NCBI GenBank assembly: GCA_016875095.1
Contig: VGSG01000013.1
Location: 1 to 64,000, forward strand
Reading direction: 5' to 3'
Origin: Deltaproteobacteria bacterium
Lineage (GTDB): Bacteria > Desulfobacterota > Desulfomonilia > Desulfomonilales > Desulfomonilaceae
Length of the DNA stretch: 64,000 nt
The notes beneath the pieces were generated by a model that ran no database searches, was not told where the DNA came from, and was given only the letters and a program-made list of their open reading frames with translations. The position numbers were made by a program, and so were the translations under genes. Shown piece by piece: positions 9,275 to 13,534 of this stretch (within the stretch, counting starts at the first letter, position 1; each line of letters opens with the position of its first letter).

Positions 9275-9793
9275 CTATTTCGCCAAGAGCCTTTTTACTA
9301 CCGCGGCAGTCAAAAGGTCTCGATTTTTCTGAGTTACTATGACAAGATCCACGTCGGGCCGCCTCTTGATCCCTTCGATGAATGGATCTCCTTTAAGAGC
9401 TATGGATCCGAGCACCGTCTGCGGCCCATCCAAAACCTCAACGAGAGTTCTCCGGAACACCTCTGAAAAGCATTCCATCTTGCCGATCTCATCAATGACA
9501 ATGATTTGATCCGGTTCCTGGGGGATCATGCTCGGCGCCGCGACCCGGTGGAATTCATCCAGATCCACGCCGTATTTTCCCACCCGGCGCCGGCTGTGGA
9601 TGCTCTCGTGGGCGAATATGCCTCTTTTTCCGTCTAGAGTTACGATTTCAAACCCGACGCGCCTGCTCTTCTCCCGTATTTCCCTGGTGAAGAACCCTGT
9701 AGCCGGTCGCGCAAGGCGGCTAATGATCTTCTCGATCAGTGTTGATTTCCCACAGCGAGGCGGACCGGTGAGCAGTATGTTTATACCGGGCAT
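9275..9793 (-). CDS. Nucleoside-triphosphatase, THEP1 family
   Basis: 172 residues, the usual length of this family. The Walker A motif GPPRCGKSTL is at residues 9-18, the family motif ATGFFTREIRE is near 31-41, and the Walker B strand IIVIDEIGKME near 97-107 is followed by a basic C-terminus. THEP1-type enzymes hydrolyse NTPs without strong base preference; their physiological role is unclear. The gene begins 6 bases after the stop codon of the CheR-like methyltransferase, so the two are cotranscribed and probably coupled. Confidence 0.88.
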   Translation of the reverse strand: MPGINILLTGPPRCGKSTLIEKIISRLARPATGFFTREIREKSRRVGFEIVTLDGKRGIFAHESIHSRRRVGKYGVDLDEFHRVAAPSMIPQEPDQIIVIDEIGKMECFSEVFRRTLVEVLDGPQTVLGSIALKGDPFIEGIKRRPDVDLVIVTQKNRDLLTAAVVKRLLAK

Positions 9794-9799
9794 AGGCGT

Positions 9800-10606
9800 T
9801 TACTGGTCTGATTTGCGGAGAATCATCCTGCTGCACGAACGCGGGGTGAGACCACCGACGCGTTCGGGCACGGACTCGCGCGCCCCGATCACCAGGAATC
9901 CTCCGGGCAAGAGGCTTTTCAGGATACGGTTTAATGCGGCTTCCTGTTCCTCGATCCCATGATAAGTCAGCAGGCTGTTCCGAAGAAAGATCATAGTGAA
10001 ATCGGTTTCGGGGGGATCATCCTCCATGAAATCGTGCAAATCCCATTTGATGCGTTTTTTGAGTGGATCGCGAACCATACATGTTTCCGGCTCCGGTCCG
10101 CTTATGAAATAGGCCTCCAAAAGGCTCGGATTGACTTCTTTGAGGCTGCTTCGCCCATAGATTCCTTTCTGGGCCCGATCCAGCGCTTCCCGGTTGATAT
10201 CTGTGGCCCAGATTTGGGCCTCTGGTCCACGTTCCAGCGCAAGCGCAAATCGATCCAAGACCATTGCGATGCTGTACGCTTCTTCTCCTCACGCGCAGCC
10301 CGCGCACCAGATTTTGATGGGATCGGGTCCCGATCGGACCGCCTCGGGGAAAATCTCCCGATCCAAACATTCCCACAGCCGGCGGTCACGCATGAAGCGG
10401 CTGATGGTTACCGTGAGCAGCGCTTCCACTTTTCTCTTGAGATTCTGATTGCTTGCCGCCTTGTCGAGATATGCCCGGACTGTTCTGCATTCAAGCTCGA
10501 GCATATTCCTTGCGAGTCGTTGCTTCACTCCCTTCCTGACTTTGCGGTATCCGCGCCAGGAGAGGCCAAATTGATCAAGAACTTCTCGAAACTCTTCGTC
10601 GGTCAT
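9800..10606 (-). CDS. CheR-like SAM-dependent methyltransferase with in-frame TGA (candidate selenoprotein)
   Basis: The frame runs from the ATG at 10606 to 9800 as one 268-residue protein if the TGA at 10289-10291 is read through. There is no frameshift. Residues 1-105 match a CheR N-terminal region (LLTVTISRFMRDRRLWECL). Motif I then reads IWCAGCA, TGA, GEEAYSIAM, where normal CheR proteins have a small residue before GEE. The rest (ATDINREALDRAQKGIY and FTMIFLRNSLLTYH) is intact, so both sides of the stop are under coding constraint. A 25-nt hairpin begins 20 nt after the TGA. I favour selenocysteine at residue 106; a simple nonsense mutation is the alternative. An upstream TTG start at 10762 is possible but the added residues do not look like the family. 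Confidence 0.65.
10244..10268 (-). promoter_or_regulatory. Candidate bacterial SECIS hairpin downstream of in-frame TGA
   Basis: On the minus strand, CGCAAT at 10268-10263 pairs with ATTTGCG at 10250-10244 (one bulged base), and GGTC pairs with GATC above it, leaving a tiny apical loop in the GGTCTTGG segment. The stem starts 20 nt after the TGA and the loop lies about 27-34 nt after it, within the spacing known for bacterial SECIS elements. The loop region contains GGTCT, as in the E. coli fdhF element. The fold was judged by eye. Confidence 0.45.
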
Positions 10607-10951: not shown

Positions 10952-12340
10952 GTGAATCCAACACTGGCCAAGCTGACTCCGAACGGACAAGTCTCAGAGA
11001 TTCTTTCCGAGAAGATCTACGACCGCATGTTCTCTGCACATCTCGAACTGGTCCCCCAACTCAATGAGGTTTACGAACTCGAACTCGCTTACTATGAGAG
11101 TCGGATACTAACCGACCAGGAGATTATGCGGAACGGCGCTTACTTTGCAAGAGTCGGGGACACGTTCACTAGACACTTCCTAATCTGCAGTGGGGAACCT
11201 GTCCGTCTGCCCAAGCATTCCTCGTCCAGACTGCGTTCGTTCTTTCAAACCAATCAGTTCAAGACCGGTTATGCGACGCACGGGTTGTTTCCCTACCGCG
11301 GCAAGTTCCATCCACAAATGATCAAAGGTCTCATCAACATAATGGGCCTGAAACCGGATGATACCGTGCTGGACCCCATGATGGGTTCTGGCACTGTGCT
11401 TATCGAAGCTCGCCTGATGGGAATCAAGTCTGTCGGGGTTGATGCCAGTCCGTTTTGCCGCTTTATGGCACGTGTAAAGATCGACGCACTCACCGTACCG
11501 CTCGCTCCCGTCCGTCTGGCGCTTGCAGAGGCCAAGTCGGTCTTTGAGTATTTTGGTTCAAAGGCGGGGCATCCCCGCTCTGAAGCGCTTGACCTTTCAG
11601 GGTGCCAGACTGTGGATTTGTTTGGCGCAACACAGTCAAGTTCGTGGTCTGCTCGAAAAGCCTCCAGCGTGGGACTCCCCCAGGGTTGTGAAGAGGAACG
11701 CATCCACAACTTTTTGCTTCTGGCCTATCTCGACGCGGCCGGGTATTCGCAGAGGAGCACTAGAAGACCGCCCTTCCAACAGTTCCAGGCCATTCTGGAA
11801 CGATATTTGTTCGTAGCTGAAAAGATTCAGCTCGTTCTCGAGGGGGCTGAAATGGAACTGGCCGAAGCGAAACCCTTGGAAGGAGACGCTAGGGCCCTAC
11901 CCCTAGAGGATGGAAGCATAGATGGAATAATCTTTTCCCCCCCGTACAGCTTCGCCATTGATTACTTGGAGAACGATCAGTTTCATCTGGGCTTTCTGGG
12001 GACGGAGCTTAGCAAGCTGAGACAAGATATGATCGGTCTCAGGGGTCGTACGCCCAGGCAAAAGTACGATCTGTACAAGCTAGATATGGAGAAAGTGCTC
12101 GCCGAATGCGCAAGAGTGCTTCGTCCTGCGCGAATATGCACTATCGTTGTCGGAACGAACAACAATCAGCTTAGCAGGATTCTGGGAGTGCATCCGGAGG
12201 AGGTTCAGGGAATTGACGAACTGCTGTGTGAGTTAGGGAGTTCACACGGTCTGAGGCTGGTTCGGCGTCTCTCCCGTCAGATTACAGGGATGGCCAACAC
12301 CATGAGGACTGAATTCATCATAATGCTAGAGCGTGTATGA
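10952..12340 (+). CDS. DNA methyltransferase of BamHI-type restriction-modification system (probable cytosine-N4)
   Basis: 462 residues from a GTG at 10952; there is no clear ribosome site, so the start is uncertain. YATHGLFPYRGKFHPQM (about 108-124) precedes the SAM-binding motif DPMMGSG at 141-147. The catalytic motif SPPY is at 329-332, and SPPY or TSPPY is characteristic of m4C enzymes. A variable region of about 150 residues between the two motifs probably holds target recognition. The gene converges on the controller and endonuclease genes, ending 5 bases from the end of the latter. It should protect the host DNA at the endonuclease's site. Confidence 0.85.
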   Translation: MNPTLAKLTPNGQVSEILSEKIYDRMFSAHLELVPQLNEVYELELAYYESRILTDQEIMRNGAYFARVGDTFTRHFLICSGEPVRLPKHSSSRLRSFFQTNQFKTGYATHGLFPYRGKFHPQMIKGLINIMGLKPDDTVLDPMMGSGTVLIEARLMGIKSVGVDASPFCRFMARVKIDALTVPLAPVRLALAEAKSVFEYFGSKAGHPRSEALDLSGCQTVDLFGATQSSSWSARKASSVGLPQGCEEERIHNFLLLAYLDAAGYSQRSTRRPPFQQFQAILERYLFVAEKIQLVLEGAEMELAEAKPLEGDARALPLEDGSIDGIIFSPPYSFAIDYLENDQFHLGFLGTELSKLRQDMIGLRGRTPRQKYDLYKLDMEKVLAECARVLRPARICTIVVGTNNNQLSRILGVHPEEVQGIDELLCELGSSHGLRLVRRLSRQITGMANTMRTEFIIMLERV

Positions 12341-12345
12341 CGCAT

Positions 12346-12954
12346 TTACGTTAATGCCCTTCCATTCGTACCTTTCGGAATTCTAGGCACGGAATCGCTG
12401 ACCGCGTCGTGTTCGATGGCCATTATTTCAAGCAGTCCTTCATCAACCTGAATCGATCTCCAGAGAGGAAAATATGGCTCTAGTTCAGGGAAGTTTCCAA
12501 TGCGATCCGTCAAGAACTGATACATATCGCGCGTCGGCAAAATAAGGATGCCGCCAACCAGAATCTCCTTGAGTATCCCAAGCGCCATCTTGTTTATTGC
12601 TCGATGACTGGATGAGACATTCCCGGTTTCCCATTCCACCGCAAAGTAACGATCTCCAACCGGATAGCAGGCGTCCATTTTCCCGGGCTTCTGTAGGGTG
12701 GCTATGTCAAAGGGCTGCTCCAAAATCCATCCCAGCGCTTTCAGGCGCTTCATGCAGGAGTTCTTTATGGGTTTAACGCCACTGCCCTGTCCGCGCTTCT
12801 TGCCGGACTGAGGATAGAGTGTGAAAGACCCTGAACCCGGCGGCCACTCTATAGACTGGATTGCTTGCCCTATCTGATTCCTGATGTTACGCCACTCTCG
12901 TGACTCGGAAAAGCTGCCCGCATCTATCAGCCGCTCAACCTTGACGATCTTCAT
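12346..12954 (-). CDS. Type II restriction endonuclease, BamHI family
   Basis: 202 residues from the ATG at 12954 (AGGGG site; longer in-frame starts overlap the controller gene). The match to BamHI is plain by eye: WETGNVSSSHRAINKMALGI corresponds to FETGNISSAHRSMNKLLLGL, LTDRIGNFPELEPYF to LTDRVTNFEELEPYF, and PRIPKGTNG to PLIPKGSDG. The catalytic triad is conserved as Asp94 (GKMD) and Glu107/Glu109 (VEWE), equivalent to BamHI Asp94, Glu111 and Glu113. BamHI cuts GGATCC; this enzyme may share or closely resemble that site. The start lies inside the end of the controller gene, so translation is probably coupled. Confidence 0.92.
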   Translation of the reverse strand: MKIVKVERLIDAGSFSESREWRNIRNQIGQAIQSIEWPPGSGSFTLYPQSGKKRGQGSGVKPIKNSCMKRLKALGWILEQPFDIATLQKPGKMDACYPVGDRYFAVEWETGNVSSSHRAINKMALGILKEILVGGILILPTRDMYQFLTDRIGNFPELEPYFPLWRSIQVDEGLLEIMAIEHDAVSDSVPRIPKGTNGRALT

Positions 12955-13231
12955 CGTGTCCCCTCTTCGAGTCATGATTGTCTTGCAGCGATTCAATCCG
13001 ACGCTCCGCTTGCCGAAGCATTTCTGAAGGGGCTAAACCTAGAGCTACCGCCAACTGCGCGAGAGTCGTTAGGGTTGGGATTTTCCTGCCGCGTTCCAGC
13101 AGGCTCACATAGGTCCTGTGCAGCCCAGCTTCAAAACCGAGCTGCTCTTGGGACAGTCCTCGCTCCCGGCGGATCTCCCTGAGAGCTCCACCAAATGCTT
13201 TTGTGAGTTTGACGGATTCCGGCCTGTTCAT
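12935..13231 (-). CDS. Controller (C) protein, HTH-XRE family, of the restriction-modification system
   Basis: 98 residues from the ATG at 13231; a start further upstream at 13276 is possible, and neither has a strong ribosome site. A helix-turn-helix of the XRE/Cro type spans about residues 12-66 (LREIRRERGLSQEQLG, then LHRTYVSLLERGRKIPTLTTL). This is the signature seen in C.BamHI, C.PvuII and similar controllers, which time endonuclease expression after the methyltransferase. The gene overlaps the endonuclease start by 20 bases. The C-terminal 25 residues are charged and not obviously structured. Confidence 0.87.
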   Translation of the reverse strand: MNRPESVKLTKAFGGALREIRRERGLSQEQLGFEAGLHRTYVSLLERGRKIPTLTTLAQLAVALGLAPSEMLRQAERRIESLQDNHDSKRGHDEDRQG

Positions 13232-13534
13232 AGGTTTCAAAGTGATGGCCCCATCTAATGTCGTTTTGCAGACCAAAGATCAACAGACTATGGTATTCAC
13301 CCCCGGGCTTATTCGAACTTATTCTTTAGGACCCGATAATACTGTGACCTCCCCGTCGTCCCATAGACACTAAGGTCGAACCCCCTCAAGGGTGATGGTT
13401 TCACAATCAACCCTATGCGCTGGGAGTCCCTCGTGTTAACATTGCGCATACTGTGACCGCTTCTCTGCAGCGTCGGGGGAAACATTACTCCATGCTCACC
13501 GTTTTTCATTGTCGTACTCCAAAGGAGGGGATTC
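13232..13534. promoter_or_regulatory. Intergenic region with possible C-box upstream of controller gene
   Basis: This 300-base gap separates divergent transcripts (controller gene leftwards, propeller protein rightwards). On the minus strand, about 13263-13290 holds the repeated half-sites TAGTCTG and TGGTCTG spaced by about one helical turn. These could be operators for the controller protein, but they do not match a known C-box exactly. An AAAGGAGGGG ribosome site for the next gene is at 13520-13529. Confidence 0.3.

What the first reader, a model, noticed from the sequence alone, without database searches (positions are those of the whole stretch)
9800..10606. Candidate selenocysteine in a CheR-like methyltransferase (in-frame TGA at motif I with a downstream hairpin)
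Seen: an otherwise intact methyltransferase is interrupted only by TGA at 10289-10291, inside motif I (CAGCA-TGA-GEEAYS), with no frameshift and clear family similarity on both sides. A 25-nt stem-loop starts 20 nt downstream. Known: deltaproteobacteria are rich in selenoproteins, and Sec usually replaces Cys. From memory, some CheR-like proteins have Cys before GEE; I have not checked this. If right, this is an unusual selenoenzyme, since the Sec lies in the SAM-binding loop and not in a redox motif.
Basis: partly seen in the sequence, partly recalled or inferred. Interest (0 to 1): 0.85.

Follow-up and report, generated by a model that had tools for sequence, protein, structure and literature searches.

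The report
CheR-like gene with lone internal TGA
A methyltransferase gene is cut in two by a single TGA codon; the organism does make selenoproteins and the nearest relatives carry cysteine at that spot, but no convincing insertion signal and no other TGA-bearing relative was found, so this is more likely an ordinary premature stop than a new selenoenzyme.

Summary
A CheR-family methyltransferase gene (10606..9800, minus strand) is intact except for one in-frame TGA (10291..10289) at residue 106, between "GCA" and "GEE" of motif I.

The genome decodes selenocysteine (Sec): it has selB, tRNA-Sec(UCA), and selD, fdhA and hdrA genes with in-frame TGA at the known Sec sites. The nearest orthologs (47-49% identical) carry Cys at residue 106.

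Three results point the other way.
- Residue 106 is not a Cys site in general: of 31 orthologs, 13 have Cys, 12 Arg, 3 Gly, 2 Ser and 1 Leu.
- A motif scan of 84,980 species genomes found no second TGA-bearing homolog.
- The downstream hairpin is no stronger than chance. The genome's five confirmed Sec codons tested are followed by a G-loop hairpin on a 7-9 bp helix (top 1-2% of coding positions); here that helix is 3 bp (84% of positions do as well), and the SECIS-like fold lies 4 kcal/mol above the minimum.

I favour a recent premature stop or a strain/consensus error. Sec (about 20%) is not excluded: flanking conserved residues are kept, and this is the only CheR-family gene detected in a genome with two CheB genes.

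The parts
9800..10606 (-). CheR-like methyltransferase gene, 268 codons with one internal TGA
   Evidence: PF01739 E=2.6e-40; orthologs at 40-49% identity
10289..10291 (-). In-frame TGA, codon 106
   Evidence: Sequence
10271..10306 (-). SAM-binding motif I, CAGCA-[TGA]-GEEAYS; Cys104 invariant in the 31 orthologs, residue 106 variable (C/R/G/S/L)
10244..10268 (-).
9275..9793 (-). NTPase_1 (THEP1-type) gene, starts 6 nt after the methyltransferase stop codon; the pair is adjacent in four other genomes
   Evidence: PF03266 E=1.3e-44

Best explanation
The TGA is a genuine stop: an otherwise well-preserved CheR-like protein methyltransferase gene carries a premature stop, most likely from a recent nonsense substitution. 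Translation ends after 105 residues, giving the N-terminal helical part without the SAM-binding domain. The downstream NTPase gene stays open. Shown: one TGA, otherwise intact frame, no lengthened branch, weak downstream RNA structure, no TGA-bearing relative found. Inferred: that ribosomes terminate there, and that the event is recent.
For: The downstream RNA is not SECIS-like beyond chance: z about 0 to -1. It meets the published constraints, but so do 49% of 1,720 coding positions, and 30% score as well. The closing helix is 3 bp, against 7-9 bp in the five authentic Sec codons of the same genome, and the SECIS-like fold is 4.1 kcal/mol above the minimum against 0-1.4. No second TGA-bearing homolog: 21 motif hits in 84,980 species genomes, all chance. 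Residue 106 is variable (C13 R12 G3 S2 L1) with at least 13 changes on the 40-row tree. One substitution turns the TGT of the nearest ortholog into TGA.
Against: The TGA falls on a site that is Cys in the three nearest orthologs; of single changes creating a TGA in this gene only 7-13% would fall on such a site. The genome decodes Sec. All other conserved residues are kept. It is the only CheR-family gene detected in a genome with two CheB genes.
Confidence: 0.65

Rival explanations
1. The TGA encodes selenocysteine, inserted by SelB and tRNA-Sec through a weak or atypical SECIS just downstream, giving a Cys104-Ala-Sec106 (CxU) pair in the SAM-binding loop. The enzyme would be a CheR-like methyltransferase whose activity could be redox-switched or metal-sensitive through that pair (the last step is speculation).
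For: Sec machinery and Sec genes present. Cys in the nearest orthologs and in 13 of 31. Intact frame. A loop UGGUC 25 nt after the TGA satisfies the published bSECIS constraints (constraints in PMC13188914). Many selenoproteins are rare against their Cys forms (PMC1088965).
Against: Structure at background level and unlike the genome's own elements. No TGA homolog found. Cys proportion 42%, below the 50% used as a filter in PMC1088965. Arg and Gly at the site are poor stand-ins for Sec.
Confidence: 0.2
2. The TGA is not in the living genome, or only in part of the population: a consensus error or strain variant in a draft assembly.
For: Genome in 202 contigs with an estimated contamination of 2.61%; a single substitution separates TGA from the Cys codon TGT of the nearest ortholog.
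Against: No other clearly split gene in the 64 kb; point errors in an assembled consensus are rare (general knowledge). Reads are not available here.
Confidence: 0.15

Closest known systems
CheR protein-glutamate methyltransferases (PF01739; solved structures 5ftw, 5xlx, 1af7)
   Same: SAM-binding domain with motif I GC[x]xGEExY, conserved over the whole domain
   Different: Low equivalog score (87 against cut-off 435); Cys/Arg/Gly in place of Thr/Ser before GEE; no chemotaxis genes next to it; paired with NTPase_1 and radical SAM genes in relatives
Selenoprotein methyltransferases (ArsM, MduS; PMC13188914)
   Same: SAM-dependent methyltransferases in which an in-frame TGA is read as Sec
   Different: CheR is not named in the review's text or list; here no SECIS above background and no second TGA-bearing homolog
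The genome's own Sec genes (selD, two fdhA, two hdrA)
   Same: In-frame TGA at a site that is Cys or Sec in homologs
   Different: They have G-loop hairpins with 7-9 bp closing helices about 18-27 nt downstream; this gene has 3 bp

Membership tests
Bacterial selenoprotein gene | Genome encodes Sec decoding (selB, tRNA-Sec, selD) | tested here: met
   selA not searched
Bacterial selenoprotein gene | In-frame TGA with conserved coding sequence on both sides | tested here: met
Bacterial selenoprotein gene | Cys (or Sec) at the TGA position in homologs | tested here: inconclusive
   Nearest three Cys; overall 13 of 31 Cys, 12 Arg
Bacterial selenoprotein gene | SECIS element downstream, distinguishable from background | tested here: not met
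   Meets the loose model, but so do 49% of coding positions; helix 3 bp against 7-9 bp in the genome's own Sec genes
Bacterial selenoprotein gene | TGA conserved in at least one other species | tested here: not met
   No CheR-context hit in 84,980 species genomes for the motif used. This is supportive, not strictly defining
Bacterial selenoprotein gene | Selenium in the full-length protein | not testable with these tools
   Needs an experiment
CheR methyltransferase | CheR SAM-binding domain above the Pfam gathering score | tested here: met
   138.4 bits against 27
CheR methyltransferase | Score above the NCBIfam equivalog cut-off for CheR | tested here: not met
   87 bits against 435
CheR methyltransferase | Methylates chemoreceptor glutamates | not testable with these tools
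   Needs an assay

The most novel reading that the evidence does not exclude
A new selenoprotein family: a CheR-like protein methyltransferase with a Cys-x-Sec pair in the SAM-binding loop, possibly a redox- or metal-controlled version of the genome's only CheR-family enzyme, decoded through an unusually weak SECIS.
Probability: 0.2. Interest if true: 0.7.

Novelty: already known. Interest (0 to 1): 0.3.

Why it matters
If Sec were shown here it would put selenium in the SAM-binding loop of a signalling-type methyltransferase and extend bacterial SECIS to structures barely above background. As it stands, the case shows how weak the evidence 'TGA aligned to Cys plus a hairpin' is: in this window about half of coding positions satisfy the standard SECIS constraints, while the genome's own selenoprotein genes give a sharper local yardstick.

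Tried and rejected
Frameshift or older decay: rejected, the frame is intact and conserved residues are kept on both sides. A paralog rescuing the function: none found, one search gives one CheR-family match. TGA reassigned genome-wide: rejected, TGA ends 18 of 36 long window ORFs. More TGA-bearing homologs: the genome contigs protein scan confirmed no relatives; motif scans of genome contigs and viral contigs gave only chance hits; plasmid tblastn gave only distant CheR, 30-33% identical in the rows shown. An earlier SECIS measure put the SECIS-like fold 6.3 kcal/mol above the minimum, but that figure depended on the stretch folded; replace it with the published model and a helix measure free of that choice. 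The conclusion stays, less sharply. No structure was predicted: a single-sequence model would not decide the question. Two literature searches for CheR together with selenocysteine or selenoprotein gave nothing relevant in the titles and abstracts listed.

Full report
OBSERVATION. The minus strand from 10606 to 9800 reads as 268 residues with a single internal stop, TGA at 10291..10289, residue 106. The read-through product is a CheR-family methyltransferase (PF01739, E=2.6e-40; nearest solved structure 5ftw, E=6.7e-28). The TGA lies between GCA and GEE of SAM-binding motif I. No other gene in the window is clearly split by one stop: the other same-frame junctions are antisense to longer ORFs or are gene ends.

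SELENOCYSTEINE MACHINERY. The genome (4.7 Mb, 202 contigs, estimated 100% complete) has selB (391.7 bits), a tRNA-Sec with anticodon tca, and selD with its own in-frame TGA. TGA also sits at the known Sec position of two formate dehydrogenase alpha genes (ARL-U-HS and ARI-U-HS) and of at least two hdrA genes (NDCSMU and NDCTIU). The organism therefore very probably decodes Sec. selA was not searched.

HOMOLOGS. Searches of about 480 genomes, up to the level of the phylum, gave 31 orthologs of 40-49% identity, none listed with a stop inside. They and the window gene form a supported group (99/97). The three nearest by identity (47-49%) have Cys at residue 106, one in the window's own family and two in another family; the other same-family ortholog has Ser. 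Over the group the site is Cys 13, Arg 12, Gly 3, Ser 2, Leu 1, whereas Cys104 and Gly107 are invariant. The state changes at least 13 times on the 40-row tree. A Cys-to-Sec exchange is possible, but the site is under no general demand for Cys. A motif scan for GC[ACGSW*]-TGA-GEEx[FY] over 84,980 species genomes gave 21 hits, none in a CheR context; the viral collection gave two, also chance.

SECIS. The hairpin is not more stable than shuffles. I compared it with 1,720 coding positions of the window and with five authentic Sec codons of this genome. By the published constraints (PMC13188914) the gene passes, with loop UGGUC 25 nt after the TGA at -9.5 kcal/mol; but 49% of coding positions pass and 30% score as well, and one authentic hdrA scores only at the 23% level, so this test has little power. 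The length of the uninterrupted helix closing a G-loop separates better: 7-9 bp in all five authentic genes (0.8-2.2% of the null), 3 bp here (84% of the null). In the 57-nt context the SECIS-like fold is 4.1 kcal/mol above the minimum, against 0-1.4 for the authentic genes. The helix measure was also chosen after seeing the data, so it is a comparison, not a formal test.

IS IT AN OLD PSEUDOGENE? No. Conserved positions are kept equally before (27/28) and after (29/31) the TGA, and the end branch (1.02) is within the range of intact orthologs. So the stop is recent, or erroneous, or read through. With no relative closer than 49%, the event cannot be dated.

CHANCE OF HITTING A CYS SITE. Of all single-base changes that would create a TGA in this gene, 7-13% fall on a site with Cys in one of the three nearest orthologs. 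This favours Sec about tenfold, but it is offset by a low prior for single-species selenoproteins, the weak hairpin and the variable site. My estimate (judgement, not a computed posterior): premature stop 0.65, Sec 0.2, sequence error or strain variant 0.15.

SURROUNDINGS AND FUNCTION. The NTPase_1 gene starts 6 nt after the methyltransferase stop codon. The same pair is adjacent in four other genomes (G175, G074, G410, G409), and a gene of a radical SAM cluster lies beside the methyltransferase or the pair in G175, G309, G410 and G409 (the domain was confirmed by Pfam in the G175 and G309 copies). This suggests a function outside classical chemotaxis, as does the low equivalog score (87 against 435). 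Yet it is the only CheR-family gene detected in the genome, while the genome holds two CheB genes in a cluster whose other products look CheA-, CheW- and CheY-like from the sequence starts only, with no CheR-like motif in the 19 kb read. Whether this CheR-like protein serves that cluster is unknown.

LITERATURE. The 2026 review lists 119 prokaryotic selenoprotein families and does not name CheR (PMC13188914). Sec-containing methyltransferases are known (ArsM, MduS), so even the Sec reading would be a new member of a known kind and not a new category. New selenoproteins without TGA-bearing homologs have been predicted before (PMC12013277).

Noticed in passing
10952-13276: A likely complete type II restriction-modification system beside the gene: N6/N4 DNA methylase (10952-12340 +), BamHI-family endonuclease (12996-12346 -, PF02923 E=1.2e-62) and a small helix-turn-helix protein that may be its controller (13276-12935 -, by eye).
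   Followed up: partly
9155-8114: Two overlapping ferredoxin-type genes follow the methyltransferase/NTPase pair on the same strand; the longer has weak similarity to the HdrA ferredoxin region.
   Followed up: no
L117, L122 (genome contigs C21, C44): HdrA-like genes in large clusters carry TGA in the CxxU motif (NDCSMU, NDCTIU), so this genome appears to use Sec in heterodisulfide reductase modules.
   Followed up: partly
L131 4137-15367 (genome contig C10): Chemosensory-like cluster with two CheB genes but no CheR in the cluster or, elsewhere except the TGA-interrupted gene.
   Followed up: partly
L036, L043, L094, L098, L110: In related genomes the CheR-like gene recurs next to an NTPase_1 gene and/or a radical SAM gene, an apparently undescribed neighbourhood.
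   Followed up: partly
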